The notes beneath the pieces were generated by a model. The model did not search any database and was not told where the DNA came from. It was given only the letters and a program-made list of their open reading frames with translations. A stretch of DNA of 64,000 nucleotides. Origin: Takashimella koratensis. Lineage: Eukaryota > Basidiomycota > Tremellomycetes > Trichosporonales > Tetragoniomycetaceae. This document shows, piece after piece, positions 19,369 to 60,849 of this stretch. Position 1 is the stretch's first letter; every line of letters starts with the position of its first letter. Position numbers and translations under genes: made by a program. The stretch is from NCBI GenBank assembly GCA_003116875.1, contig BCKT01000007.1, positions 794,365 to 858,364 on the forward strand. The letters run 5' to 3'.

Positions 19369-21145
19369 ATGGCCCCCCTCAACCCGATCATACCCGGGTT
19401 CAACCCCGACCCGTCCATCTGCTGCGTCGGGACCGACTTTTTCGTCGCTACCTCTTCCTTCGAGTTCTTCCCCGGTGTCCCAATCTACCACTCGACTGAC
19501 TTGATCAACTGGAAACTAATCGGACACGCACTGAACCGACCCAGCCAATTACCGATGCGTGCGGTTCCCTTCTCCGGAGGAGTGTGGGCGCCAACACTCA
19601 GGTACCACAAGGGAAGATTCTATATGACCACTGTGATCATGCATGGAAGGGGCTCAGCAGAGGTGAGTCAGAGTGAGATGATGATACGATTTGAAAAACG
19701 AGCTGACAGGTTGTAGTACTCGCCACGACCATTCTTCGTGTATACCGATAATATCTGGGACGAGACGGCGTGGAGTGAGGTGGTCAACCTGCAGGCCCAT
19801 GGGATCGACCCAGACGTAAGTTGTTACCACCATCCCCACTGACAACTCAGCTGTTCTTTGACGACGATGACCGAGTGTACCTCTGCACTGCACCCAAGTA
19901 TCGCGCGCACCAGAACATCTCTGGCACCCCTATTCCGCACCTTATCACCGCTGGCTGCGAGGTGGATATCACCACTGGCCGTGCGTTATCCCCTCAGGTC
20001 ATCCTCCGCGTCTCTGATCCCGACGTTGGTCGACGAATCGCCGAGGGTGCACACATCTACAAGAAAGACGACTGGTACTACCTTGTCACTGCTGAGGGCG
20101 GGACAGAGAAACTCCACCGCGTGATCATCACGAGGAGTAAACACCCTCTGGGGCCATACGAGCTCCCGCCGGAAGGTGTGAACCCATTGGTCTTCAACCA
20201 TCTTCACCCGGAGGTACAGCATACGGGGCATGCGGATTTCGCAAAGGGCCCCGACGGAAGGTGGTGGGCGGTCATGCTAGGTGTGAGACCACAAGAGAAT
20301 GGGATCGCACCCCTGCAAAGAGAGAGTTTTCTCGCGCCTGTGGAATGGCCAGTCAACGGTTGGCCAAAAGTCAATAATGGCGAACTGATAGGACTGGTTA
20401 TTCCAGCGGATCTGCCTTCGACTCCGGCACCCTCTCAATGGAGAGACGACTTTGATAGCGGTAAGCCACCGCTGAAGCAAGCCGGAGCCTACAAAATACA
20501 CCGGCTGACTGAGTTTGCAGAATCCCTTCAATCCGGTTGGTACCATGTCCGAACACCTGTTGGGTACGAATATAGCCTCACCACTCGACCCGGTTCCCTG
20601 ACTCTCTACGGATGCGGATACACCATCGACAACGCCGAGTGCCCCAGTTTCCTCCTTCGTAAACAAACTCAGCTCAGTGGGGTATGGACAACCGTGTTGG
20701 ATTTCGATCCGCAGAACGCAGTGGACGAAGCGGGGACAGCGGTGTTCATTAGCGGACACTCTTATGTTGCGATGCTGGTGCGACGGGGAGAGGAGGGGCT
20801 GCAGGTTGTAGCTAGGTGGCCTGAACAAGGGACGAGCGAGAGGAAAGTAAGTAGAGAGTAGAGAAGTACCCGGTACTGACCAAACAGGAGGTCAGTGTGG
20901 ACCTGTCATCGGGTAAACCAATAGAACTTCAAATCAGGACAACGCCCTTGACATATTCCCTATCGTTTAGAGAGAACCAGGCGGTTGAGTTTACAACACT
21001 TGTAGAGCTCCCCACCACTGTCTTGCATGAGCAGACGGAACTCCGAGCATTCACAGGCCCGCACTTTGGGCTATTCTCACAGAGTAATAATCAGTACAGC
21101 ACTACCCCAGCTTATTTTGACTGGGCGTCGTTCACGCCTGAATGA
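19369..21145 (+). CDS. Glycoside hydrolase family 43 beta-xylosidase / arabinofuranosidase-like
   Basis: Four exons, 19369-19662, 19717-19815, 19851-20846 and 20888-21145, join in phase 0 to 548 aa. GH43 hallmarks: PGFNPDPSI at residues 9-17 with the catalytic base Asp14, GIDPDLFFDDDD near 127-138 with the pKa-modulating Asp, and EGAHIYKKDDWYYLVTAEGG from about 196 with the general-acid Glu. A C-terminal beta-sandwich (about 345-548) is as in fungal two-domain beta-xylosidases. It should release xylose or arabinose from short oligosaccharides. The start at 19369 (MAPLNPIIPGF) matches intracellular family members. An in-frame ATG at 19192 would add 59 residues with a hydrophobic stretch (FALILWLSLLLC), so a membrane-directed or secreted form is possible. 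The next gene is an MFS sugar transporter on the same strand. Confidence 0.93.
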
Positions 21146-41037: not shown

Positions 41038-41778
41038 ATGACGACTAGTCTCAAGCCAGGAGCTACTGGCCGGTACTTACCCACCAATGCGATCAGCTCC
41101 TTATCGACCGATGGTATGGATCCATGGACCGCACTTTGTTCAAACCTCGAGTCTCAGCTCATGATTGCCAGTTCTCAAATGAAGACCTCCAAGCACCCTA
41201 TCAATCGCAAGCTTCATCCCGCTTTGACACAGCTTGAAAGGTTCTGGGGAAACGTTATACCAAGTCAGCTGAACGCCCGAGAGCTCTCAAGTCAAGACGA
41301 AGCCAATAAGACATATGCAGAGCTATACGAGGAAGTCAAATACATTGAGACCCAGCTAGTCGAGCTCAACGGAGGCAGAAATCCGATTCCGGAAAAGCTG
41401 ATCGGACTGGCCTCATGTGTCTCTTCCGATGAAACTGGCATCTATATTTCCGTCGACAACGAGTACATGACGCTCGCCGAACGACGCGGAAAGTTAACGA
41501 TCGACCCCAACGGTAGCCGGCGAGAGTTCTCCTTTCCCCTTGACATCAACTTGGTGGTCATCATACCGTGGCACAAACATTGCATTTCATTTGTCCCGCC
41601 CAATACAAAGCCCTCGGTTTTCCCTCTTGGCCCAGACATCAATTCTGAGAGATGGTACTCACTCACCGCCGACGTGCATACCAACGTCACCCCGGATAGT
41701 CATGAGTTGCTTTCCTCTAGCCTCAAATGTGTTCACTCTGAGATATCTGACAAATCGGTTGAGGAAGCTGCCTTGTAA
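41038..41778 (+). CDS. Island gene A: unrecognised 246-aa protein of the tandem family
   Basis: A single uninterrupted ORF, ATG 41038 to stop 41776-41778. I do not recognise a known family. The N-terminal ~100 residues look helical (MDPWTALCSNLESQL, AELYEEVKYIETQLVELN). Then come the shared island motifs: EKLIGLASCVSSDETG (about 120-135), the strand IYISVDNEYMTLAE, the strand FSFPLDINLVVIIPWHKHCI (about 162-181), and a last strand LLSSSLKCVHSEI shortly before the end. Closest to gene B, which has DRWTALC, EELIGEGNYLAWN and VVFPWHKHFVFYYPN at matching positions. No signal peptide or membrane span is visible, so probably soluble and intracellular. Function unknown. Confidence 0.75.
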   Translation: MTTSLKPGATGRYLPTNAISSLSTDGMDPWTALCSNLESQLMIASSQMKTSKHPINRKLHPALTQLERFWGNVIPSQLNARELSSQDEANKTYAELYEEVKYIETQLVELNGGRNPIPEKLIGLASCVSSDETGIYISVDNEYMTLAERRGKLTIDPNGSRREFSFPLDINLVVIIPWHKHCISFVPPNTKPSVFPLGPDINSERWYSLTADVHTNVTPDSHELLSSSLKCVHSEISDKSVEEAAL

Positions 41779-42366
41779 TATCACAAGTGGTGGTGGAATC
41801 ACTAATCCATCGGACAGTGTATTTTGGCATGTCGCTATCCCACTAACTTTTGAAGTCTTCAATACTGTCCTCCTTGCCTGTGTGTTCGTGTCATACATAG
41901 TAAGAGGTTGTCGGAGAGCGGGTAGGCGGACTTGAGAGGGTAGGGAAGGAGAGGTGTCTGTTTGCTCTTTGACCGTCTGCGGAGCTGATTGGAGAGCGAG
42001 TAGACTAGCAGTAATGAATGGACTGTACGTGTCATGTCTTAGCTTGTGAGGAGAAAGGTGCACTCTAGTTGAAACGCGAATATCCTTTCTAGTGTTTGAA
42101 AAAATAAGGGATGTTTGAATATTGTCCTCCACCTGGTTGAGCTGATGGCGATCTCCGACGACATCCTTTTATACTCAACACTCCCTTGGATCGGACTTTG
42201 TTTCAGCATACTGTACATAGCGGCAACCAATGCACGTAGGATATGTATTTGTCGACCACATCGAAAACACGAGCTCTCTTCCAAGACCCAGCTTTCATAA
42301 TTGAAGATTGACCTTCAGTAAAGTCCTCGTTGAAGTCAGAGACATACGCTCGAAGTCGACTGAACC
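41779..42366. other. Spacer between island genes A and B
   Basis: About 590 bp, no gene supported. TTTATACTC near 42166-42174 is a possible TATA element for B but is about 200 bp from its ATG. Confidence 0.4.
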
Positions 42367-43116
42367 ATGACAGTCAATGTCAAGACACCCTTTGCCCGGC
42401 GAAAAATCGCAACGGACGGCAACATCTATGCCTTACCAGACTTTACAACCGATAGGTGGACGGCTTTGTGTGCCCCTATCGTTGCCAAGCTATCAAAAAT
42501 CACAGACAATCATCGAATGCAATACTCCTTAAACTCGGAAGACCGTATAAGCTATTGTGTATCCGAAATCATCTCGACATTTTACACTCGACTACCTGAT
42601 CACCTAAACACCCAGAACTACTCAAGCGAAATCGACGCCGACGCCAAATATAAAGCACTCTCCACGGAAGCCTCGCGTCTCAGTTCCCTCCTGGTACAGT
42701 TAACCGAAACCACGATCCCATCAGCGCCTGAAGAATTGATCGGTGAAGGCAACTACCTTGCTTGGAACATGTCTCAGCTACACGCTACAATCAACAATAA
42801 ACGTCAGAAAGTCAGTAGCATGGCGAGCTCGTTCAAGGTATATGAGAACGAGAAGGGAGGCATGACTCGTGTGGTGTCGTTCACTATTGATCTCAAGTCT
42901 ACAGTCGTCTTTCCTTGGCATAAGCACTTCGTATTTTACTATCCGAATAAGGCTGCCCACACTCTAGCCCAGCCAACGATCGTTCCATTCCAATCAACCT
43001 ACCATCTAGATGAGGGGGACTCAATCACTGCCGAGGTGGAGCCCGTCAGTTGTCCGAACGGCGAGGTGACGTCGGCTATCCTCAAGTGCACTTACGCGGA
43101 AGGCGCTTGCGACTGA
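42367..43116 (+). CDS. Island gene B: unrecognised 249-aa protein of the tandem family
   Basis: Uninterrupted ORF from ATG 42367 (MTVNVKTPFARRK) to stop 43114-43116. Paralogue of A: FTTDRWTALCAPIVAKL near residue 26, a helical part with ALSTEASRLSSLLVQLTE, the hinge PEELIGEGNYLAWNMSQ, strand LHATINNKRQKVSSM, then VVSFTIDLKSTVVFPWHKHF and VFYYPN, and the final strand TSAILKCTYAEG four residues from the end. The PWHKH element is identical in A and B and absent from the other members, so A and B are the most recent pair. No targeting signal. Function unknown. Confidence 0.75.
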   Translation: MTVNVKTPFARRKIATDGNIYALPDFTTDRWTALCAPIVAKLSKITDNHRMQYSLNSEDRISYCVSEIISTFYTRLPDHLNTQNYSSEIDADAKYKALSTEASRLSSLLVQLTETTIPSAPEELIGEGNYLAWNMSQLHATINNKRQKVSSMASSFKVYENEKGGMTRVVSFTIDLKSTVVFPWHKHFVFYYPNKAAHTLAQPTIVPFQSTYHLDEGDSITAEVEPVSCPNGEVTSAILKCTYAEGACD

Positions 43117-43612
43117 CACGTCCCTTAAGGATCTGGGCGTGCGAACATCAGATCCAGAAGGAAAGGAAGAGCTGCACCACTTGTGTTTCAAACCCTTTTC
43201 TTGCCCGGCTGGCTTGTCAGCCCTCCCCCCCCCCCCCCCCTCCCGCCTCTCCCGGTCCCCCCTTCTCTCTCCCTTGCCAGCCCCACCTTTGATTTGCCCA
43301 GCCCACTTGACTTCGCCCAAGTCCCGTTAAAATACCGATGCACACTGCTCATTGACCTTTCTGGAACTTTCCAAAAGTAGCTGTCGTCACTCGATGCGTT
43401 TGTAAGGCTAAGCACTCGCCGAACGTGTCGAAGGTGGGTTTGATAAAGGATTGCAGGTGGAGCGGTGGTGTATAAATACTTGTCCTGAGGGGGGAGGGGA
43501 AATGCTTACCCCCCCTTTTTCTTCTTTGCTTTCTACCACCATCCAATCCGAACTCGATCATCGAATCACTTCATACGACAGTTCGTGCAACGAACGACAA
43601 CCGTGCTCCCAA
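43117..43612. other. Spacer B - C with a poly-C run and the gene C promoter
   Basis: About 500 bp. A run of about 14 C starts near 43226, followed by CT-rich sequence. The last 170 bp hold the shared promoter listed next. Confidence 0.6.
43441..43530 (+). promoter_or_regulatory. Core promoter of gene C, near-copy of the gene F promoter
   Basis: ATAAAGGATTGC, then TATAAATA at 43471-43478, then GTCCTGAGGGGGGAGGGGAA and a C-rich plus CTTCTTTGCTTTC-like leader. The same elements in the same order and spacing lie at 48531-48630 before gene F. AGGGG (STRE-like) occurs twice just after the TATA box. ATG 43613 lies 142 bp past the TATA start. Confidence 0.75.
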
Positions 43613-44527
43613 ATGGATCCCCCCGAAGAAAGCGGCGACGACGACTGGCTTCAAGTTCCATCGAATCCCGAACCCGACTTCGATCCCGTTTTGGCGGACC
43701 CTTCTTTCTGGAAAACAGATGCTGGAGAGACTTTGAGGCGCCCAAGGTTCTCAACATGGTCCACAACAACTCGTCAGAACGAGACGAGCAGGGGCAGCTA
43801 TTTCACGATCGTCGGTGTTGGAAAAGCGACCTACGAGGACGCAGAGACGGCGCTCCACTGCAAGAGCAAAGCTCTGACGACTGCGGTGTCCGCGAACCAC
43901 GAAGACCTCGGTTTCAAGGGCATTTCGTACGCCAACGAATTCGACAAGCTTGGTTACAATTGGAGGTCGCTCCAAAGTCGCCGCATGAACCAGCATTTCA
44001 CTCGCACCAACAAGCCACTGGAATCAACAGCTTTGAAGTCGACTTCTGCTGCATTCACCCGAAACCTCCTCGAAACGGAGTGCCCGATTGGCGGACAGGC
44101 CGATCTCGATTGGAAGACGGTGGAGCTTGGTTTTTCGCGCTCCCTTTTCGCTTACAATGACGAATCGTTTGCCACCCCTCACATCTACGTCTTCATCAAC
44201 AAAAGTCTTCGACCCCTCTCAGAGTGGACCATCAACCCCTGTGTGACGCACAAATTCGAGAACGACAGTGTCAAAGGAGATTATTTCTCTCTGCGCCTTT
44301 CTCTGTTCCCCGCCGACACCGTCGTTTTTCCCGCTGGCGACGAAATTTTCGTTTACAATCGCGCCAAAGACATGGGGAAAAATACGTTTGCAGACGAGAA
44401 CACATTTTGGGTCGAGGAGCATACGACACCCGGCGCTCAGCGGTTTTGGCTCCACCTCAACATGTCGACACGCGAGCGCAACAATGCGACCTACGACGGG
44501 GAGGCGACAAGGGCGACGTCCGCGTGA
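43613..44527 (+). CDS. Island gene C: unrecognised 304-aa protein of the tandem family
   Basis: Uninterrupted ORF to the stop at 44525-44527. I chose ATG 43613 (MDPPEESGDDDWLQVPSNPE) because the in-frame ATG at 43502 sits only about 30 bp after the TATA box. The N-terminal ~190 residues are acidic, then helical/mixed, without a motif I know. The C-terminal part has the island order: strand PHIYVFINKSLRPLSEW (about 195-211), strand YFSLRLSLFPADTVVFPAGD then EIFVYNR (about 224-250), and a last strand RFWLHLNMST. Of the shared core it keeps 'DTVVFP-G' best. No signal peptide. Function unknown. Confidence 0.75.
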   Translation: MDPPEESGDDDWLQVPSNPEPDFDPVLADPSFWKTDAGETLRRPRFSTWSTTTRQNETSRGSYFTIVGVGKATYEDAETALHCKSKALTTAVSANHEDLGFKGISYANEFDKLGYNWRSLQSRRMNQHFTRTNKPLESTALKSTSAAFTRNLLETECPIGGQADLDWKTVELGFSRSLFAYNDESFATPHIYVFINKSLRPLSEWTINPCVTHKFENDSVKGDYFSLRLSLFPADTVVFPAGDEIFVYNRAKDMGKNTFADENTFWVEEHTTPGAQRFWLHLNMSTRERNNATYDGEATRATSA

Positions 44528-45395
44528 TCCTCCCGGTGTGGTCTTCGACCGACGATTTCCCAAATCGTCTCAGTTCCTCGGCCACACCATCTCTTGAGTG
44601 ATCCCGTACTTTTGAATTTGAAGAGTGAGATCAGGTTGACGTTGAGTTGCACGTGACGCACTGCCGTACTGAGTAGGATAGTTTCACCAAGTGAGACTGT
44701 CCGTTTGGATCGAACGTACAGCGTGTGAGAATGGTCAGAGCAGTTTACCTACGAATGCGATTTTGCTTTGAGTTGGAGAGGAGCCCACTGACGTCACTCC
44801 CTTAAGCACATGTTGGCCAGACTGGCTGGCCAAGTATGACCTTACTCTACCTCTGCTCATTATAATGTCTCAGCTCGACGGAAACAGGTCGCGCTGATGT
44901 GTTGCTTGCCTGCCAAAATGCTCCTATGAGAACTCTGCATGGCGCGATGAAAGGCTTACAAAGCTTTCAATGTTCCATTATCTTTCATACCCTCTCTTTC
45001 GAGTGCCTTGCTTCGCTCTCTTCAATTGCTTTTGGATGCCTTTACATCATACTGGTCGTCCACGTAGATCTCCATTGCGCCAATACGCCCGAATGCCACC
45101 CAGGCGCTCCCTTGCGCATCTCTAAAACGCCGATGACAAAAGAGAATACAAGAAAGGAGGTTGCTCAGTCAGCTCGGTAGTAGAAAACGTTGGTGTGCTC
45201 GGCTCAGTGCAATACCACAAACCACCTCTCCCCCCTCCTGTTTTCTTTTCTTTTTCTTTCTCTCTCTCCCTCCATAGTATTTTTCTTACAAGATTTTGCT
45301 AGATAGTATCGACTCCGGAATCACACTTCACTCGACGAGAAGTTCACCGCCACCGTTGAATCATATCTGCTCCATTATCTTGAGCCTACACCATA
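44528..45395. other. Spacer between island genes C and D
   Basis: About 870 bp. The ORF at 44899-45180 encodes a Cys/Leu-rich peptide with no family similarity and lacks an ATG at its 5' end; not called. 45220-45275 is CT-rich, probably the D leader. Confidence 0.45.
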
Positions 45396-46073
45396 ATGGC
45401 GTCCGAAGTTTGTTTTCAAAACCAGAGCGGGGGAACACGCTGCTCGTTGTCGCAGGCGTGTACCAAGATATCACACTCCTTCATTCGAAAGGGCAATTCT
45501 TGTGTTGATAGCACCAAATCGTCTGTGTGCTTCAACCTCGCTTACCTCTGGTCGCAGCGGGCAGATTACGTCAGATTCTCGGGCGACGAAGCGAGTTTTG
45601 ATAAGCCTATGTCGGACGAGCTACTCGATTTTGTAGCCAATGAACACAAGACTCATTGCAACATGGTTGACGAGCAGTCTCAGTTGAGCGAAGAGACGGT
45701 TGCGTTCTCCAACAGGTGGGCCCTGAACTTGGAACATGTCTTGGTGTCAGTCGAGCAGACGTTCCAACACATCCCTACTACGCAAGGCACAGACCAGCCC
45801 AGGCATTCGAAACCTCCAGATGTTCCGCCGAACATGCTTTCGATCCCAATTCATGACAACCAGATTTCCATGAGCGTGCCCAAGGGCAACATGGTATATG
45901 TTTACGACAAGGGCGAGCTGTCCACCAAGCGGCTCGTCCCGGTCCCCTCTTTCTTCCAGGAGGTGTGGAAATGGATCCCTGGGTCAACGACGAATCCCTT
46001 TTCTCACGAAGAGGCTGAGGGCAATTTCAGTGTCTTCTTCGAGGTCAAACAGCCCGTCCAAACAAATGACTAA
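45396..46073 (+). CDS. Island gene D: unrecognised 225-aa protein of the tandem family
   Basis: Uninterrupted ORF from ATG 45396 to the stop at 46071-46073. The N-terminal half belongs to the D/E/H subgroup: SQACTKISHSFIRKGN (about 19-34) then SVCFNLAYLWSQRADY (about 43-58), which lines up with CTKFSHQLIHTG and VHLNLARMWRDL of H and with CTDYKHSLIRRG and ICLNLARFWNNS of E. The middle is shorter than in E and H. The C-terminal part has PNMLSIPIHDNQISMSVPKG then MVYVYDKGEL, and a last strand GNFSVFFEVKQPV. The hinge motif LIG-S is not clear here. Function unknown. Confidence 0.72.
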   Translation: MASEVCFQNQSGGTRCSLSQACTKISHSFIRKGNSCVDSTKSSVCFNLAYLWSQRADYVRFSGDEASFDKPMSDELLDFVANEHKTHCNMVDEQSQLSEETVAFSNRWALNLEHVLVSVEQTFQHIPTTQGTDQPRHSKPPDVPPNMLSIPIHDNQISMSVPKGNMVYVYDKGELSTKRLVPVPSFFQEVWKWIPGSTTNPFSHEEAEGNFSVFFEVKQPVQTND

Positions 46074-46694
46074 ACGAAATGGTATTGCGCTGCTTGGCTA
46101 TCTTAATACTTGGGAGTGGAGGGGGTTCATTATCACTTTGCTTACACCGATGAAGGTCATTTTCGTCGTTACACACGTTCGAGGGGTCTTCTGCAAGGTA
46201 CAGGTCATATGGTTTTCTTTGCTCTGTCTTACTCTTTGAGCCTCCCTTGTTTCCCTGACAGCTGAATCCCTCTCGATCTTTCCACACACAGCATTGTCTG
46301 GCTGCAAAGACAGTTGCCGCTTGACTCTCCATTTTGTTCCGTACTGATCCACGTAAAAGTTCCTTCATCTGAGGGTAGAGGCGTGAGGTGTGCTGAACGA
46401 TTTGTTACCATCCCGTTACCATCCTTTCATGCCTTTGTGCTGCGCTCGCGTACGTGGTCTGAGTGTTGTTGCTTGACAGCCTCTGGTATCACCCACTCCT
46501 TTGATGATTGTTGTCCACCATGCAGCTATATGATGTACATCTCAGAGGAGGAGGAAGAAGGGGAAGAGGGGGAACGACAACTGAGAAGGGGGGGGGGGGG
46601 GGGGGGAGAGGGGGGGCGGTTCAATATCATAACTCCCAAACGTCTTTCCTCTGCATTCTATATCGGTCGAACTCCCACCGACGACCTGCCCCCA
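46074..46694. other. Spacer D - E with a poly-G run and the gene E promoter
   Basis: About 620 bp. TATATGAT at 46527-46534 is followed by ATCTCAGAGGAGGAGG, recalling the TATA plus CTGAGAGGGG arrangement of C and F; ATG 46695 is 168 bp downstream. A run of about 15 G starts near 46589. Confidence 0.5.
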
Positions 46695-47716
46695 ATGTCC
46701 ACCCAAGTTTCTCCCACAAACGACCTACTTCGACCCAGTTGGGATAGCATCGAAGACGAATGCACTGACTACAAACATTCTCTGATCCGAAGGGGAAAGG
46801 TCACAGTCTCTGCCCAGTCCCCAACACTCCGCTCACGAGCGACACGGTGAAGGCGACCATTTGCTTGAACCTCGCACGATTCTGGAACAATTCCGGGCGG
46901 TACACGGCGATTTTGAGAGACCGCAAGAAAGACCGAGAAGAAATTGAAGAATTGTCCGAAAAGTTGAAGCCGAATTGGGCGACCCTCAGCAACGACCCAG
47001 AGGCTCGCGAGTGGCTGCAGCTCTTCAGTTCACAAGTCGCTGCATGGAACGCCGGATTGAATGGTCCCATCGTTGATTCCCAAGCCTGGCAGTCATGCAC
47101 AGCGGCACTGCAGAAAAGTATCGAGCAGATGCTCAGTGCCGATGAATTTCCGAATCAGCTGCTTGGAGTCAGCAACATTTGGGCTCCCTCCCCAGACAGG
47201 GTGATTGTCATCGTCGACGCGAGTTTTCGTCGACTCAGCGACATCGCATCGATATCACTGCCCAGTCAAACTCTCGAGGGCAATTCGTCTTCAAGTGCTC
47301 GCCGCCTCAAATTGAGCATCGGACTCGAGCAATACGACACCGCTGTCAAATTTCCCTTTGGACGATCGCTGCACTCCAATCGGGCGACCTCCACCTTCTG
47401 CGAACCCATGCAGGGTCAAGTCTTCGATCTCATGAGGCATCTCCTCACTTACAAGTTGGACCTCTCCTCATCATATTTCCAGCCCCAAGTGAACGATTCG
47501 AACATTCAGAGACAAGCAATGGAGGTCGAATTTCTACCGAAGGTTGTGAGAGGCTCGGAGGGGGTGCCGTGGAACACTGTCTGTACTTTGGTTTTCCTAA
47601 TCATCAGAGCTGGGATGGCGCATGCCTCTCTATTTGCCTGTGGGAGAGTACCAGCAGTCAGTGCTGCTCACTCTTTGCGCGTTTCTGATTACACATACAG
47701 AGCTGCTGAACGATGA
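46695..47716 (+). pseudogene. Island gene E: family member with a -1 frameshift (pseudogene or sequence error)
   Basis: The reading frame opens at ATG 46695 (MSTQVSPTNDLLRPSWDS) and contains ECTDYKHSLIRRGK, then stops at 46848-46850. The rest of the protein continues in another frame from about 46830 (PLTSDTVKATICLNLARFW) to 47716. Both parts match gene H in order, so one gene was split by a one-base change, most likely in the CCCC run near 46826-46829. After the break: WQSCTAALQKSIEQML, the hinge FPNQLLGVSNIWAPSPD, strand VIVIVDASFRRLSDIASI, strand LKLSIGLEQYDTAVKFPFG and a last strand RQAMEVEFLPK. Relatives end soon after this strand, so the final ~50 codons may be read-through. No intron of acceptable length explains the frame change. 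Confidence 0.7.
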
Positions 47717-48734
47717 GCTGCTGCACACTTCCCAGCTTTGTCTCGACCTGTCAGAGGTGAGAACACAACTTCGAACATCTTTGAGGGGAATGGGGGTAGG
47801 GAGAGAAGGGAATACAGAGCCAATGTGCAGCAAAAGCCCTCTGCATTCTCGCCGTGTTGCAAATTCTTGCACTTTACCCGCCGTTACCTGAGTAGCTGGT
47901 ACGGTCAGTGTGAATCAGTTCTTGTTTCAGAAGTCAGCGTGACCTCCCTAAGAACCTTGCAGACATTCTGCGCTTACGATGCTTCCTCACGTAAGCACAT
48001 AGTATGCGTACGCTGGACTCAACTCGTGGCGGTTCTCCTTGCCGCGGGGNGGTCTTTCTTGCAGAGTGCTTGCCATCCCGTCCTTTTGCGGCAAGCGATT
48101 GTCTGGGAGCTTCGATGGTTAGAGCATCAAATTTTTCACAGCAGTGTAAAGGCTTGGAAATGCTGTTCGGCCGAAATTGGCTGACTCACTAGGACATCAA
48201 GTGACTTCGTCTTTCCCTAGCTCCACTTCCCCGTCGACGAAGGTCGACAGCATGAAGGATCACCTCAGCGAATCCTCCCTTCATGGGAACAGCGTACTCA
48301 GTATCGGCCGAAAGCCACTCTGGAGGTTCAGCCACTGTTTCACTCTTTTGTTTGTATATCCTATGTGTCATGCTATAGCTACAGCCTCTGCGACAGCTAT
48401 ACCTCTGCTCCAACCCGTGCGAGAGCCGTGAAAGATGTCCTGCCAGCGCGCTAGAACATTCCGGATTGTGAGGTTATGACGTCGCAATGTCTTTGTGTAA
48501 CATGCAACTTGGATGATAAAGGTCTACCACAATAAAGGATTGCTGGCTGAGCGGGTGTGTATATATGCTGTCCTGAGAGGGGTGGGGAATTTGTTTCTTC
48601 CCCCAGGTTTCTCCTCTTCGCTTTTGCACCACTACGACAACGACGACCAACGCAACCGCTACTTATTCGCCTTTTGCCAATCCACGCTTGATTCAACGAC
48701 AATCCCGCCTACCAGCACATTACCTCGTCTCCCC
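47717..48734. other. Spacer E - F, with an assembly gap base and the gene F promoter
   Basis: About 1 kb without a supported gene. One N is present at 48050. A minus-strand ORF at 48189-48413 is discussed under findings. The last 200 bp hold the gene F promoter. Confidence 0.5.
48531..48630 (+). promoter_or_regulatory. Core promoter of gene F, near-copy of the gene C promoter
   Basis: AATAAAGGATTGC, TATATATG at 48560-48567, GTCCTGAGAGGGGTGGGGAA, then a C-rich and TTTCTCCTCTTCGCTTTTGC leader. It aligns to 43441-43530 along about 90 bp with only small gaps. Confidence 0.75.
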
Positions 48735-48809
48735 ATGCAGTGCGAAGGTGACGAATTCGACAGCGGATCCGTCGGGCAACCTCCCCCTTATGAGTTGCAC
48801 AGCCCGTAG
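48735..48809 (+). other. 24-codon ORF in frame with gene F (upstream ORF or cut-off N-terminus)
   Basis: ATG 48735 opens a reading frame of 24 codons (MQCEGDEFDSGSVGQPPPYE and on) ending in TAG at 48807-48809. It is in the same frame as gene F, whose first ATG comes 27 bp after this stop. Its distance from the TATA box (175 bp) is close to that of gene C's start (142 bp). It is acidic like gene C's N-terminus and has a PPPY motif. Confidence 0.55.
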
Positions 48810-48836
48810 CAAGCCCCTGGCCTCAATCCGACCGCC

Positions 48837-49574
48837 ATGAGTGTGCGACCGCGACCTTCGATCATGTCGGAGCTCACTGACAAGGAACGCTCCCAACATG
48901 CTTCGTTCATTGACGTTGGAGACGCTTTGTACAGCAAGAGCGTCGAGTTGACGAAACTTGCGCGCCACGGTTGCTTCGGCCGCCCCTCTGCCCGAAACCT
49001 TCTCAAAATCGCTGAGATGCTCGACAGCGTCGGCAAAAGCTGGAGGGATGCCGACCGATACCATCTGTCGGAGTTGATGAAGAATGAGGACTCGAACACC
49101 AGCATTCAATTCGCTTCTCGTCCCGGCAAGATCATCGTGGACGCTTCGAAGGATTCGTTCAATCTCGCGAGTCTCGAATCGGTGACAGATGGCGACGTCT
49201 ATACATCTTTCCAGGCGATCTGTGGATTGCAGGCTCTCGAGCTTGGAGGAACACCTCAGACCATTGTCGATGTCAATGGAAAAGTCAGCCTCGTCAGCGA
49301 CCTCTCAGAAGGGAACGCAGAGTTCTTTGAGAGCAATGGCGACCTAAATTTCAAAGTGCGCTTCAAGCTCGCCAACACCACCGACAAGGTCACATTCCAT
49401 TGTGGTACGACCTGGGCAACGTTTCCCGACTCAAACGGGCGAACGAATGCTTCCAACGACCAATCGTCCTGGACGATCGACGGCGACGTCGTGACTGTCA
49501 CCATCAACCGAACAAAGTTCTTGGCAGAGGACAACTGGGAGGAGGTCGGCCGGCCTCGCTTGAGATTTTCTTGA
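48837..49574 (+). CDS. Island gene F: unrecognised 245-aa protein of the tandem family
   Basis: Uninterrupted ORF from ATG 48837 (MSVRPRPSIMSELTDKE) to the stop at 49572-49574. The N-terminal ~85 residues look helical (DKERSQHASFIDVGDALYSK, LLKIAEMLDSVGKSWRDADR). The C-terminal region is beta-rich: SFQAICGLQALELG (hinge position), TIVDVNGKVSLVSDLSEG (strand, turn, 'L-S'), LNFKVRFKLANTTDKVTFHC then GTTWATF (the FP-G strand position), and WTIDGDVVTVTINRTKF as the last strand. The F-P pair is changed to T-F-H here. An ORF in the same frame just upstream, ended by TAG, may be the lost first part. Function unknown. Confidence 0.72.
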   Translation: MSVRPRPSIMSELTDKERSQHASFIDVGDALYSKSVELTKLARHGCFGRPSARNLLKIAEMLDSVGKSWRDADRYHLSELMKNEDSNTSIQFASRPGKIIVDASKDSFNLASLESVTDGDVYTSFQAICGLQALELGGTPQTIVDVNGKVSLVSDLSEGNAEFFESNGDLNFKVRFKLANTTDKVTFHCGTTWATFPDSNGRTNASNDQSSWTIDGDVVTVTINRTKFLAEDNWEEVGRPRLRFS

Positions 49575-50454
49575 GATTTTAAGTGGAGCTTCTTCGTTGG
49601 ACTGAGGGCTTATCTGAGTGATACCGGTGTGGTGGAGGGCCTCGTTGAGTCAGTACAGGGTCTCTCATTGATACGATTGTTTGAGCTGGTACGCTGTTTC
49701 TTCCAAATGCACACAGAGCTAGGAACGCGCTTTCTTCCGCCCTGACATGCTGACAGCTTATGGAGTGCAACATGCATCTATACACTATGATGCGTACACA
49801 GCCAGACCTAGAGGGAATTGCACGCCTGTACACTTGTGCCTTTCTGTATCCTCTGCTATCTAAAAAATGGGAGGACTGCCGCATATGGAGCTGAGGAGCA
49901 GCGAGTGGGAGAAATTGGAGACCTAATCATTCTGCGGCCAAAAGCCTCTGCTCCCTCGCCTCGCTGCAGCCTCGTCAACTCGACTTGCCCTTCGCCTTCT
50001 ACCTGTGGTCAGGCAAAACAGCCAAACGCTCCACAGCTCGCTAAAAGACGATCGTGGCAGATCCAATGAAAGGTTGTCAGCAATCAAAGGACAAGTAACG
50101 AAACGGGGCGCAACCCGAGAGCCCTTCGTCGTTCCACTTGGTCTTTTACAAACAAAGGGTGAGCAGGTGGGACGCTTGGCCTATTGCGCCTAAGTCAGGA
50201 AAGTCTAGACCTTGAGGTGGTGTCGCAAGTGGAAGTCCGCACTGGTCAAAGGATGGTCGATATCTAAAGATTTCTGGTGAGGACAGGGGATTTTGGGGGT
50301 CTCAGAGGGAGAGGGGAGAGAAGATACAATCCCCCCTCCCTTGCGATTTTTTTGTCTCTTTCTCTTTCTCAACGGCCCACGACGATCGTCAACAGCACTC
50401 GACAACACTCAACAACCACCCACAAACGACACACCATCATCACGACAACACACC
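49575..50454. other. Spacer between island genes F and G
   Basis: About 880 bp. No gene supported. Near 50240-50345 an AAAGGATGG, TATCTAAAG (about 50258-50266) and AGAGGGAGAGGGGAG series loosely resembles the C/F promoter. A CT-rich leader follows. Confidence 0.45.
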
Positions 50455-51477
50455 ATGTCCACTTCTTCCGACACCGAACCGCAGCGGCTCGACACCGAAA
50501 CGCAGCAGCTCGACACCGAAACGCAGCAGCTCGACATCGAAAGGCAGCAGCTCGACACCGAAAGGCAGCAGCTCGACACCGAAAAGCAGCAGTTCAAAAT
50601 CAGCTGGGAGGAGCTCGACATCAGCGAAAACAATCTCAAGGAGGAGTTCAACAAGACAGCCGACATGCTCCAAGAATCTCGTGACAGGCGGAAGACCGCC
50701 CTGTACCCCGGCAAATTGTCATCGATTCACTCGTCGGCGACCGTTCCGTTATCGATCGGCCAAGAGACGACTCAGAAAGCGAGGTCCACTCTCGACTTGG
50801 CGAAATCGTTCGTTATACCCATCGATTTTGCAGCGAGGAAGGATGACAACCCAGAGTTGCTGCTGTCGGGCTTCGACGCCCTCATCTCAGCTTGGCGGGG
50901 GGAATTCAATCTCATTGCCAAACCAGACCCGCCCGTGGAACCACCTTTCGCCCAGAAGAAGCTCTCGTTGCTCGCCGCCATGAGAACCCGGGACATCCTC
51001 TCAACCTTGCTTTCGAAGTGCAAGGATTCTGTGGACGACCCTGGGCGACTCTCCCGTCTATCGAAGATGCTCAAGAAGGCGCTCACCGCTTCCTACGGGT
51101 TTTACGACCTTCGAGCAGATGAGGTGCTCAACACTTTCGTGTCCAGGAACAGCAAGTGGGAACGACTCTCTGCACTCCCGGTTGTTGCCGAGAGCTCCAA
51201 GTCGGAGTGTTCCCTGATCGAACCCACTGAACTGCTTTGGGGCCTCGTCACCATCGGCGTCCAACCAAACGAAGAGTTTTTGTTCCCTTTCGGTCTCAGT
51301 TCAGTCCTTTACCAAAAAGGCCGGGCGAAAATTTTGGAATCCAGAAACGGACATGATCTCGCCGCTATGGTGTTCTCAAACACGCAGGGAATGCCTGGTT
51401 CGGTGCATGTGCAGAGCTGTTTTCCGATAAAGTCACTCCTCAAGCCCGAATTCGTCAGCGATTTCACAATCGAGTGA
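50455..51477 (+). CDS. Island gene G: 340-aa coiled-coil member of the tandem family
   Basis: Uninterrupted ORF from ATG 50455 (MSTSSDTEPQRLDTETQQ) to the stop at 51475-51477. Residues about 11-45 are five near-identical heptads of the type LDTETQQ, ending in QQFKISWEELDI, a clear coiled coil. The middle is helical (DALISAWRGEFNLIAK, RLSRLSKMLKKALTASYGFY). The C-terminal part follows the island order: LNTFVSRNSKWERLSALPVV, then LLWGLVTIGVQPNEEFLFPF then GLSSVLYQKG, and a last strand GSVHVQSCFPIKSLL. It is the only member with an N-terminal repeat. An extension upstream to 50293 would need a non-ATG start and is not used. Function unknown. Confidence 0.75.
   Translation: MSTSSDTEPQRLDTETQQLDTETQQLDIERQQLDTERQQLDTEKQQFKISWEELDISENNLKEEFNKTADMLQESRDRRKTALYPGKLSSIHSSATVPLSIGQETTQKARSTLDLAKSFVIPIDFAARKDDNPELLLSGFDALISAWRGEFNLIAKPDPPVEPPFAQKKLSLLAAMRTRDILSTLLSKCKDSVDDPGRLSRLSKMLKKALTASYGFYDLRADEVLNTFVSRNSKWERLSALPVVAESSKSECSLIEPTELLWGLVTIGVQPNEEFLFPFGLSSVLYQKGRAKILESRNGHDLAAMVFSNTQGMPGSVHVQSCFPIKSLLKPEFVSDFTIE
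50484..50595 (+). repeat. 21-bp tandem repeat in gene G
   Basis: About five copies of a 21-bp unit of the form CTCGACACCGAAACGCAGCA (plus one base), each encoding one heptad. Copies differ at a few positions (ACG/AGG/AAG, ACC/ATC). Confidence 0.9.
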
Positions 51478-52180
51478 TTCAACTTTATCACGTTGTCGAG
51501 GCTCGATCAGCCCAACGAAATGCCGCGGAGACCTTTCCTACCGAGCTCATCTTCTCAGTCTTCGATCTGCTCTCAGAGGAGGAGGAGGAGGAGGAGGAGG
51601 AGGAGGAGGAGGAAGAGATGTTTATGTTACAAGGCGGAAGTGACTTGATGCAAGAATTTGTCTGTTGAAGAATATGAGTTACATCGGACAACGCTTCTGT
51701 GGAGTCTGATCATGATACACTGGAATAGATCATGCGGTTATGTGCTATAACATCGTCAACTAAGCATTGGCCGCCTGCCGTGCAAAACGCCAAGGCATTC
51801 ACCAAGCTCCCGTGTGAAAACTCCAAGCTGACCGCTCCATTTTCTCTCCGGATAGCTGGTGATCGTGCTCGCCGGTGCGGCTGCACTCTTTCCTTTGACT
51901 ACCTTTGACTTTCCCACTGTTGGCAAGATTTCACAGGCGTCCATTGTCTGGCCGATCATCATGGTTGACATTCCTTTGATTTGCGTCTCATCTTGGTTGT
52001 CCGACTTGCCACTCTCCTTTGGCCCGCTTACCCCACTACCTTATGTTTCCCTCTGTACTCAGTATAGACAACACCGAAAATTACCGCCTTTGCTGCTAGT
52101 CTTTATCATTGACCTACCTGATACTTTGACCATTCAACCATTCAACCATTTTGACTTATATCAAAGCTACAGATACTGTT
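51478..52180. other. Spacer between island genes G and H with a GAG repeat
   Basis: About 700 bp. A GAG trinucleotide run lies at about 51577-51618. No gene supported. GTATAGAC near 52061 is a weak TATA-like element for H. Confidence 0.45.
51577..51618 (+). repeat. GAG trinucleotide microsatellite
   Basis: About 13 tandem GAG units about 100 bp after the stop of gene G; noncoding in this annotation, though open as a poly-Glu ORF. Confidence 0.9.
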
Positions 52181-53191
52181 ATGTCTTCGGAGCCCACTTC
52201 AGCTGAAACAGTGACAGACCGGTCGTCTGTCTATTGGGACAACACCGCAGATGCTTGTACCAAGTTTTCGCACCAGCTCATTCACACGGGGTTGGACTTG
52301 ATGCCGAAAGAAACTGACAAAGACACACCTTCTGCGGCATACATAAAGGCGAGCGTTCATCTCAACCTCGCTCGAATGTGGAGAGACTTGAGCAAGCATA
52401 CCTCATACCTGAAGACCCTTCATGATGAAACCCAAGAGATGAAGGAACTGCACACCGACATGACGAAAGACTTGGCGACGCTGGAAAATTTCCCCGAGTT
52501 TCCTGCACTGCTCGAACAGTATATTGAACATGCAACGCAGCTACAGAGTGTAACCCAGGGCAGGTTTATCAACCCTGAGACTTGGAACTCGGCAGTTATG
52601 GCGATGCAAGAGCATGTGAATTCCGCGTTGCAAGCCGATACCGTTCCCCAGGGGATCATTGGATTGTCCAACTTTTACGCACCGTTTCGAGACAAGGCGT
52701 TCGTGAACGAAAACGATGTGTATCATAGACTTTCAACCGTCTCGCTCATGAGGCCATCGATGGCCAGATTGGGGTCCAGCTCAACTGTCACTCAACCCTG
52801 TTTAGGTCTGTTCATCAACGTGAAGACGATTGATACAACCATCTGTTTCCCGTATGGCATGATTGCTGTAGAAGGCCGTGACGGGCAACGATTCAGCCGA
52901 TTCACAGAGGGCGAAACTGTTGGTTACTTTCGAGCACTGGAGAACTGTCATTTCCGACTTTCTACCTTCCCCTTCGAGGCGGAACAAGAGGGACCTCTGA
53001 TTAAAGACAGGAACGCCAAAGAGGAGAAGGAAGCAGAGAGGAGGAGGAATGGGATCGTTGAGGACGAGTGGTGGGAGAGGAAAGAAACGGTGCCGGAGGA
53101 AGAGAAGAAGTTGGCTCAATTAAGGGTTACTTTCTGTCTGACATCGAACGCTCCCAGCAAAGCAGGGAGGCAGCCTGATAGCAAATCGTAG
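52181..53191 (+). CDS. Island gene H: unrecognised 336-aa protein of the tandem family
   Basis: Uninterrupted ORF from ATG 52181 (MSSEPTSAETVTDRSSVYWD) to the stop at 53189-53191. It is the most complete D/E/H-type member. Order: ACTKFSHQLIHTGL (about 25-38), ASVHLNLARMWRDLSKHTSY (about 57-76), a long helix with DETQEMKELHTDMTKDL, ETWNSAVMAMQEHVNSALQ, the hinge PQGIIGLSNFYAPFRD (about 155-170), FVNENDVYHRLSTVSLM, strand LGLFINVKTIDTTICFPYGM (about 206-225), a charged insert rich in Glu, Lys and Arg (about 270-315) and the last strand LAQLRVTFCLTS. Nearest relative is E. No targeting signal. Function unknown. Confidence 0.78.
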   Translation: MSSEPTSAETVTDRSSVYWDNTADACTKFSHQLIHTGLDLMPKETDKDTPSAAYIKASVHLNLARMWRDLSKHTSYLKTLHDETQEMKELHTDMTKDLATLENFPEFPALLEQYIEHATQLQSVTQGRFINPETWNSAVMAMQEHVNSALQADTVPQGIIGLSNFYAPFRDKAFVNENDVYHRLSTVSLMRPSMARLGSSSTVTQPCLGLFINVKTIDTTICFPYGMIAVEGRDGQRFSRFTEGETVGYFRALENCHFRLSTFPFEAEQEGPLIKDRNAKEEKEAERRRNGIVEDEWWERKETVPEEEKKLAQLRVTFCLTSNAPSKAGRQPDSKS

Positions 53192-58618: not shown

Positions 58619-60849
58619 ATGTACGGACTCGCACTGATCACACTGGCGCTCGCTGCGCAGGGCGCGTTCGCCGACTCTCACTCTCGTCGCTTTGGGAACA
58701 AGCGGCACCGCGCCAGCCGGCTGGCCGCTGCCGCGTCCGACGAACTTGAGGCCCGTGCTGAACCCGTGGTCAATGACCTTGTGAGGAAAGACGCGTGCAC
58801 ACTCGGATCCTGGCAGTGCGTTGGCTCCGAGCTGCAATGTGAGTCATTCCGTTTCTACATCAGTCGCCACCATCAATCATAACCCTACATAGACACGCCC
58901 ATGCTAATCCACACGTAGGGTGCTACAACAACCAATGGAATATTGTGCAAAACTGTACCGGTCAAAACGTCGTCTGCTCGTGAGTCTATTCCTCGCTTTC
59001 AACCTCGCCGCAGCTTGGTTCTTTTCCCACGTCTATTAATACCCCCCTCCCTCCATCCCGCTTCCCACACTTCTTTCTCGTCTGAAACCCAACCAGTATC
59101 TTGTACCTCTGCTGACGAGATCGATTGCCTTACTCCGACTCCAGTGCGGACCCGAATGCGACTGGCTGCATCTACACGTGGCAGGTCCCGGATGACTCGG
59201 CCGCGACGACCACTGTCGCGACCACGACTTCTCCTGCGAGCACAGGCACGGCGCAGGTCGCCAGTGATGACTCTACGACCGACTCCTCGTCGACTGAAAA
59301 CGAGGACACGACTGGTGACGATGATGAAGGCGACGACGGCGAGGATGAGACGTGAGTAGACTTAGTCCCGTGCCCCTACCCTGTACTAGGCAGAGATAGA
59401 GAGGGCGCATCGCATTCCTCGATCCTCGCTGACACGTGCAAACCTTAGTTGCCCTACAGACGACGAGACCGAGTCTACGACGTCCAGCCCTGCCCCGACT
59501 TCCTCTGTGAGCGCGTCGGTGGTTTCTTCTTCTGTATCTTCCGCTTCGGCTTCGGCCTCGGTTTCTGCTCTCGGCGGCGACCTCTTCGCCAACGGCGGCA
59601 AGGGCAACAACGGTAACAACGGTGCCAGCTCGTCCATGACTGCCTCTTCTACGTCCAACGGGTTCGGCACCAACGCGACGAGCTCCACTCCGGCCGCGTT
59701 CGGTGCGGCCAGCGGGTCGGTCTCGGTGTCTGCCTCCAGTGCGACTGCCACGACAACTGGTCGTCACGGTAAGAGCAAGGGCGGGCAAGGATCTTCCGTC
59801 TCGTCGTCGGCCGCCGCTGGCGCCACTCCCCACGTCGTTTCCAGCGGCAGCGGTGCGAACGGCACTGCTTCGACCAACACGACTACTACGACCAACACCA
59901 CCACCTCGACCTCGAGCGGGAGCAGCGGCGGCGGGAGCTGGTCAGCCCCGCACTACGTCATCTACGCTGACGAGTGGCTCAACTCGATGCCGTCTGCCTC
60001 CGACTTGTCGAGCTACAACCGCTTCGTCCTGTCCTTCTGGATGACTGGCTCGGGTGCCGTCGACGACGCTCAGGCCTGGACTGGGTTCTCCGCTTCGACC
60101 CGCCAGTCGGTTCTGGACGAGTACCACGCTGCCGGGATCGCTTTGATGGTCTCTGCCTTTGGGTCCACCGACGCGCCGACGTCTAACGGTGCCGATCCGA
60201 CCGAGACGGCCCAGAACCTCGCTGCGTTCGTGAAGCAGTGGGGCTTTGACGGTGTTGATATCGACTACGAAGACATGGACGCTATGAACTCGAACCAAGC
60301 CGAAGCCTGGCTCATCACCTTCCAAACTGAACTCCGCAATCAGCTCGGCTCGAGCTACCTCATCTCCCACGCGCCCGTTGCTCCTTGGTTCACATCCGCC
60401 AGCGTCTACGCTTCGGGAGCGTACGTCCAGATTTTCCGCCAGGTAGGGGACACGATCGATTTCTTCAACGTCCAGTTTTACAACCAAGGCGATATCTACA
60501 TGGACTGCACGACTCTCATGACGAAATCGGGAAGTGACTGGCCATCGACAAGTGTGATGGAGATCAACTCGTACACTGGTGTTCCGCTGGATAAGATTGT
60601 ATTGGGGAAACCACTGGATTCGGGCGCGGCTTCGAACGGGTACATGGACCCATCGAGCTTGGCTCAATGTGTCGCACAGGGCAAGGCGCAGGGTTGGCCA
60701 GGAAGCGTCATGTACTGGGAGTGGACCTCGGTGAGTCTCTCGTTCTGGCTGCGCAGTGTTGGCTTGTCTTTGAAACCATACTCGCTCGTCCGCTGACACC
60801 CGTATAGGAAGCCACATCCGTCATCGAGACACTCCTCGCAGCGGTCTAA
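58619..60849 (+). CDS. Secreted glycoside hydrolase family 18 (chitinase-like) protein
   Basis: Five exons, 58619-58838, 58919-58979, 59145-59351, 59449-60730 and 60808-60849, join to 603 aa. A signal peptide is clear: MYGLALITLALAAQGAFADS. Next comes a small Cys-rich module (CTLGSWQCVGSELQ-WCYNNQ, then NCTGQNVVC), of the kind seen in fungal chitin-binding parts. A Ser/Thr-rich linker of about 200 residues follows, likely heavily O-mannosylated. The catalytic domain has FVLSFWMTGSGAVDDAQAW, GIALMVSAFGSTD, GFDGVDIDYEDMD at about 428-440 (the DxxDxDxE GH18 signature with the acid Glu kept), LISHAPVAPWF, FFNVQFYNQGD and GSVMYWEWTS. It should cut chitin or related N-acetylglucosamine polymers in the wall or outside the cell. 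Confidence 0.88.

What the first reader, a model, noticed from the sequence alone, without database searches (positions are those of the whole stretch)
41038..53191. Tandem island of eight unrecognised, strongly diverged paralogues with a shared C-terminal motif order
Genes A-H lie head to tail on one strand between TRS65 and the GPATCH1-like gene. Reading them side by side, most repeat the same C-terminal order. (1) A hinge: EKLIGLAS (A), EELIGEGN (B), NQLLGVSN (E), QGIIGLSN (H). (2) A strand plus turn: IYISVDNEYMTL (A), IYVFINKSLRPLS (C), VIVIVDASFRRLS (E), FVNENDVYHRLS (H), VDVNGKVSLVSDLS (F). (3) A strand ending in FP or a variant: VVIIPWHKH (A), VVFPWHKH (B), TVVFPAGD (C), SMSVPKGN (D), AVKFPFGR (E), TICFPYGM (H), FLFPFGLS (G), KVTFHCGT (F). 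(4) A last strand near the stop. I know no described family with this order. Such a diverged tandem set inside a housekeeping region suggests fast evolution under some conflict or self/non-self role, but the function is open.
Basis: partly seen in the sequence, partly recalled or inferred. Interest (0 to 1): 0.9.

Follow-up and report, generated by a model that had tools for sequence, protein, structure and literature searches.

The report
Strongly diverged tandem fungal protein family
A row of eight side-by-side genes in a fungus belongs, for at least five and probably seven of them, to one undescribed protein family that also sits in two more clusters of the same genome; the proteins look like soluble two-part molecules (a bundle of helices plus a beta-sandwich) whose job is still unknown.

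The parts
41038..41778 (+). gene A, 246 aa, family member (predicted helices at residues 29-128 = 41122-41421; beta-sandwich 136-236 = 41443-41745; motif VVIIPW at 41554-41571)
   Evidence: phmmer A-B 1e-21; leave-one-out HMM 1e-10; AF2 model pLDDT 72.1, pTM 0.67
42367..43116 (+). gene B, 249 aa, family member (motif VVFPW at 42904-42918)
   Evidence: leave-one-out HMM 3e-6; AF2 model with A only: beta domain 154-244 at block pLDDT 59-80, residues before 151 mostly under 50
   Evidence: hhalign of residues 226-285 (341-aa numbering) to the 13-member profile, 0 of 150 shuffles, in register; HMM, domain-HMM and block tests negative
45396..46073 (+). gene D, 225 aa, family member
   Evidence: leave-one-out HMM 1e-8; D-E 4e-5 and D-O 2e-4 by phmmer
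46695..46850 (+). first piece of gene E, in another frame than the rest; resembles the N-terminus of H
   Evidence: phmmer H versus this frame E 0.052, H residues 11-38; ORF list
46769..47716 (+). main open frame of gene E (no in-frame ATG before 47129), family member, apparently frame-shifted (pseudogene or assembly error)
   Evidence: phmmer E-H 1e-28; leave-one-out HMM 4e-9
48837..49574 (+). gene F, 245 aa, unproven member
   Evidence: promoter shared with C; C-F N-terminal hhalign 1 of 60 shuffles; HMM, domain-HMM and block tests negative
50455..51477 (+). gene G, 340 aa, probable member with an added N-terminal 7-residue (21-nt) repeat
   Evidence: joint block test 16.9 versus -6.0+-4.9, 1 of 1000 shuffles, 0 of 101 control ORFs; hhalign to D/E/H 0 of 60; DNA repeats; whole-profile HMM negative
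52181..53191 (+). gene H, 336 aa, family member with a longer loop between the two landmarks and a charged insert near the C-terminus
   Evidence: leave-one-out HMM 1.5e-4; spacing 157 versus 106-132 in the others except E
43443..43532 (+). promoter and leader of C (TATAAATA), duplicated upstream of F
   Evidence: local score 74 versus maximum 29 in 600 shuffled pairs; repeat D3, 82% over 38 nt
48532..48624 (+). promoter and leader of F (TATATATG), the copy of the C promoter

Best explanation
SHOWN: the island is one of three tandem clusters, in a Tremellales-like fungus, of a strongly diverged protein family (16 genes counted, 13 secure). 15 of 16 are single-piece ORFs (E is broken). By eye none has an N-terminal signal-like stretch, and none has a clear membrane helix (one segment of O is borderline). 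They share two landmarks: a helix ending in an aromatic residue (W in 12 of 16; none found in I), and about 106-132 residues later (157 in E and H) a strand ending [ILVF]-x-[WFY]. PREDICTED: a helical bundle followed by a beta-sandwich (AlphaFold2 of A). INFERRED: the beta-sandwich is a variable binding or recognition module and the helical bundle an oligomerisation or effector module. The genes arise by local duplication and now and then move between clusters, and diverge because they recognise changing partners (other strains, parasites or selfish elements). E may be a decaying copy, as birth-and-death evolution would give.
For: Family. Three clusters. Architecture. Maximum 19-residue Kyte-Doolittle mean 1.21 or less in 15 of 16 genes, 1.71 in O at residues 349-367. 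Deep divergence: end branches median 1.58 changes per column; the three clusters need 4 label changes where 2 is the least and shuffles average 6.5 (4 of 200 as low), so genes are mostly nearest to their neighbours, but O of one cluster joins J and K of another (82/85). Shared promoter of C and F while their proteins are barely alignable. No recognisable family.
Against: No function has been tested. Rapid evolution is not separated from great age: no ortholog from another species was available. Only 1 of 5 AlphaFold2 models was good (72.1; the others 44.8-57.4). No NLR or HET-type gene was recognised near the clusters; only nine neighbouring exons and two flanking ORFs were scanned, and one of them (L025:6287-6976, -) holds leucine-rich repeats. 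The clusters sit among housekeeping genes. The deep forks of the tree are weak (38/24) and the tool warns that long branches meet at I-N and P-Q.
Confidence: 0.4

Rival explanations
1. An ordinary lineage-restricted family with a stress, storage, developmental or chaperone-like role, diverged because of age and weak constraint, without any conflict.
Against: Three clusters with 16 genes and very deep divergence are more than I would expect of such a family (recall, no call); no sequence match to small heat-shock proteins.
Confidence: 0.4
2. MLKL/HeLo-like cell-death executioners: the helical bundle inserts in membranes when the beta-sandwich senses a trigger.
Confidence: 0.1
3. Domesticated protein of a mobile element or virus, kept and multiplied by the fungus.
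For: Single-piece ORFs (15 of 16) beside an intron-containing gene (sequence of the G-patch gene); no homologue found for the two queries tried.
Against: No significant match to viral structures (best E 0.006 with TM-score 0.14); flanking elements were not looked for beyond direct repeats.
Confidence: 0.06
4. The island is a chance row of unrelated orphan ORFs and the shared motif order is pattern-seeking.
For: C, F and G fail the whole-profile HMM, C and F also the domain HMM and block tests; the motif as written is loose.
Against: Leave-one-out recovery of 13 of 13 members with 0 of 200 shuffles each.
Confidence: 0.04

Closest known systems
MLKL four-helix bundle / fungal HeLo, HELL and Goodbye-like domains (incl. 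basidiomycete MLKL-like, BaMLKL)
   Same: An N-terminal helical bundle of similar length aligns to MLKL 2-104 at 2.4 A over 76 residues in the predicted model
   Different: No profile match listed, sub-threshold structural score, a C-terminal beta-sandwich instead of a kinase, amyloid motif or NLR body, and N-terminal extensions in several members
Small heat-shock proteins / alpha-crystallin domain
   Same: Helical N-terminal part plus C-terminal beta-sandwich of about 90 residues; 16 of 50 rows in the list for the B model
Lineage-specific tandem gene families under birth-and-death evolution in fungi (recalled as a kind, no call)
   Same: Clusters, deep divergence, one broken copy, no outside homologue found for the queries tried
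   Different: No family with this pair of domains was recognised by any library used here

Membership tests
The family defined here (helical bundle + beta-sandwich) | Recognised by a profile built from the other secure members | tested here: met
   A, B, D, E, H and I, J, K, N, O, P, Q, R: 13 of 13, E 9e-18 to 5e-4, 0 of 200 shuffles each
The family defined here, gene G | Both landmarks at the family spacing | tested here: met
   1 of 1000 shuffles, 0 of 101 control ORFs
The family defined here, gene G | Recognised by the whole-family profile HMM | tested here: not met
   49 of 200 shuffles as good; hhalign to the 13-member profile 8 of 150
The family defined here, gene C | C-terminal block in register with the profile | tested here: inconclusive
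   hhalign 0 of 150; HMM 61 of 200, domain HMM 379 of 1000, block test 218 of 1000 shuffles as good
The family defined here, gene F | C-terminal block in register with the profile | tested here: inconclusive
   hhalign 3 of 150, in register only with C and G added (2 of 150); HMM 33 of 200, domain HMM 121 of 1000, block test 703 of 1000 shuffles as good
MLKL/HeLo four-helix bundle | Sequence-profile match to HeLo, SesA, Goodbye or MLKL N-terminal domain | tested here: not met
   None among the 14 Pfam families listed for 16 members (weak matches mostly filtered; I did not check which of these profiles this Pfam copy holds); no MLKL chain among the 4 PDB sequences listed at E up to 10 for the 13-member profile
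MLKL/HeLo four-helix bundle | Same helix arrangement | tested here: inconclusive
MLKL/HeLo four-helix bundle | Membrane permeabilisation and cell death | not testable with these tools
   needs expression assays
Small heat-shock proteins | Alpha-crystallin domain | tested here: inconclusive

The most novel reading that the evidence does not exclude
A yeast-forming basidiomycete lineage has built its own many-gene recognition system from small two-domain proteins, an MLKL-like four-helix executioner fused to an Ig-like beta-sandwich sensor, laid out in three diversifying clusters and acting without NLR receptors.
Probability: 0.08. Interest if true: 0.85.

Novelty: new variant of a known kind. 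Interest (0 to 1): 0.5.

Why it matters
It defines a protein family that the libraries used here miss, with a usable profile, two landmarks and three genomic clusters. That makes two questions testable: whether Tremellales species carry rapidly turning-over clusters of intracellular proteins, and whether these mark a recognition or cell-death system of their own. It also shows how far neighbouring genes can drift while a promoter (C and F) stays recognisable, if F is indeed a member.

Full report
WHAT WAS CHECKED. The window lies at G000:C7:794365-858364 of a 25.1-Mb genome in 24 contigs. Among the database relatives of the window's chitinase are named Tremellales at 71-72% identity (Tremellales sp., Kockovaella imperatae), Cryptococcus and Dioszegia at 62%. 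I infer a Tremellales-like fungus whose own proteins are not in that database. Genes A-H were read. The right-hand neighbour has a G-patch domain (E 8e-6). The left-hand neighbour has only a weak TRS65 match (E 0.004, below Pfam's cut-off), so that name is plausible rather than shown.

IS THE SIMILARITY REAL? Pairwise, A-B (1e-21) and E-H (1e-12) are clear. With E's longer open frame E-H is 1e-28 and D joins (D-E 4e-5). Plain phmmer found no convincing link for C, F or G.

THE FAMILY IS WIDER THAN THE ISLAND. Searching the same genome with A gave a weak place on contig C1 (E 0.013). Its ORF K, used in turn, gave J (1.7e-14), O (3.6e-4) and back to A (0.007). Reading the surroundings showed two more tandem clusters: I, J, K, N on the + strand at C1:980150-985182, just before a gene with squalene-cyclase domains, taken as ERG7, and O, P, Q, R on the - strand at about C1:1014911-1021500. 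Twelve single-protein searches of the genome were made, with A-H, I, K, N and R; J, O, P and Q were not used as queries. No place outside the three clusters appeared, but the first look is coarse and 16 is a lower bound.

STATISTICS. With 13 secure members (A, B, D, E, H, I, J, K, N, O, P, Q, R), each was sought with a profile of the other 12: E 9e-18 (K) to 5e-4 (Q), for 1970 sequences, 0 of 200 shuffles as good in all 13 cases. The earlier ten-member version gave E 1e-20 to 5e-4. hhalign leave-one-out gave z 6.3 to 32 for the 11 members tried (E and O not tried). With the C-terminal block alone, 12 of 13 had 0 of 1000 shuffles as good and R 1 of 1000, though several E-values there are weak (O 0.74, R 0.38, D 0.2).

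C, F AND G. C: hhalign 21.8 versus 13.1+-2.1, 0 of 150, aligned over the strand, turn and FP block, against negative HMM (61 of 200), domain HMM (379 of 1000) and block test (218 of 1000). G: domain HMM 0 of 1000 in register, joint block test 1 of 1000 shuffles and 0 of 101 control ORFs, hhalign to D/E/H 0 of 60, but hhalign to the 13-member profile only 8 of 150 and HMM 49 of 200. F: HMM 33 of 200, domain HMM 121 of 1000, block test 703 of 1000; hhalign 3 of 150 off register, 2 of 150 in register once C and G are in the profile. The block test is blunt: among the 13 secure members both blocks fell on the intended places in only six (E, J, K, P, Q, R; H was off by two residues), A and B took a wrong first block, D, I and O a wrong second one, and I, N and O had 6, 9 and 4 of 1000 shuffles as good. 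A failure there is therefore weak evidence. By anchors that I chose by eye, C, F and G have the FP block 69, 62 and 66 residues from the C-terminus (62-79 in 12 of 16 genes; 96 in R, 117 in H, 124 in E; O shows 81 in the trimmed piece, 103 in the whole protein) and a helix end with W 124, 119 and 132 residues before it (106-132 in 14 of 16, 157 in E and H). This is descriptive only. W stands at that helix end in 12 of 16 genes, Y in B and J, F in N; in I no aromatic residue was found. The FP strand reads [ILVF]-x-[WFY] in 12 of the 13 secure members (D differs), with P in the middle in 9 of 13.

PROMOTER. Upstream of C and F lies the same stretch of about 90 bases with a TATA box (score 74 against a maximum of 29 in 600 shuffled pairs). 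Three other pairs of 120 pass the shuffled maximum slightly (I-Q 36, D-G 32, C-O 30), as short or low-complexity runs.

GENE E. A first piece that resembles the N-terminus of H (E 0.052) is in one frame (46695-46850) and the rest in another (from 46769); the stretch between holds no GT-AG interval of usable length by eye. It is a pseudogene or an assembly error.

ANATOMY. 15 of 16 genes read as single open pieces, and codon usage favours the stated frame in 17 of 17 pieces, while the neighbouring G-patch gene shows several short introns by eye. By eye no member starts with a signal-like stretch; the highest 19-residue hydropathy mean is 1.21 or less in 15 of 16 and 1.71 in O. AlphaFold2 of B with A alone gave only the beta domain at fair confidence (mean 49.4). 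A with B, H, E and D gave pLDDT 72.1 and pTM 0.67: helices 29-49, 54-77, 86-111, 119-128 and nine strands from 136 to 236; the other four models scored 44.8-57.4. H and E carry a longer loop. O has about 250 residues of low-complexity sequence in front; G has heptad-like repeats.

EVOLUTION. End branches are very long (median 1.58 changes per column). The best supported groups are Q-R (100/99), I-N (95/92), E-H (93/92), D with E-H (90/95), J-K (89/88), A-B (88/92), and O with J-K (82/85), the last crossing clusters; the deepest fork is weak (38/24), and the tool warns that long branches meet at I-N and P-Q. This fits local duplication plus occasional movement. It does not separate fast evolution from age.

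VERDICT. A real, undescribed (as far as searched), strongly diverged family in three clusters, found from a sound reading of raw sequence. Its conflict role is a reasonable but untested guess, about level with an ordinary role.

Noticed in passing
G000:C1:980150-985182 (L019:7150-9372, L020:30-2182) and C1:about 1014911-1021500 (L024:1911-8500, - strand): Two further tandem clusters of the same family, four genes each, about 30 kb apart on another contig.
   Followed up: yes
window 43443-43532 and 48532-48624: The promoter and leader of C and F are copies of one another although the proteins are barely alignable.
   Followed up: partly
window 46695-46850: Gene E is frame-broken in this assembly; a long G run lies just upstream (about 46588-46606).
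   Followed up: partly
window 48050: An undetermined base (N) between E and F shows that the assembly has weak spots here.
   Followed up: no
window 50469-50594: The start of gene G holds about six in-frame copies of a 21-base repeat (LDTETQQ-like, coiled-coil-like).
   Followed up: no
window 43487-43520, 48577-48607, 50275-50345: G-rich then C-rich runs in the leaders of C, F and G; could form hairpins.
   Followed up: no
L024:6992-8500 (-): Member O carries about 250 residues of low-complexity sequence in front of the family core and a borderline hydrophobic segment at residues 349-367.
   Followed up: no
window 20274-20861 and 59636-60796: Exons of a GH43-type glycosidase (GH43_C2 domain) and of a GH18 chitinase (by its relatives); the latter places the fungus near Tremellales.
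   Followed up: partly
L025:6287-6976 (-), G000:C1:about 1029287: An exon with leucine-rich repeats (RanGAP-like by recall) some 8 kb from the second C1 cluster.
   Followed up: no
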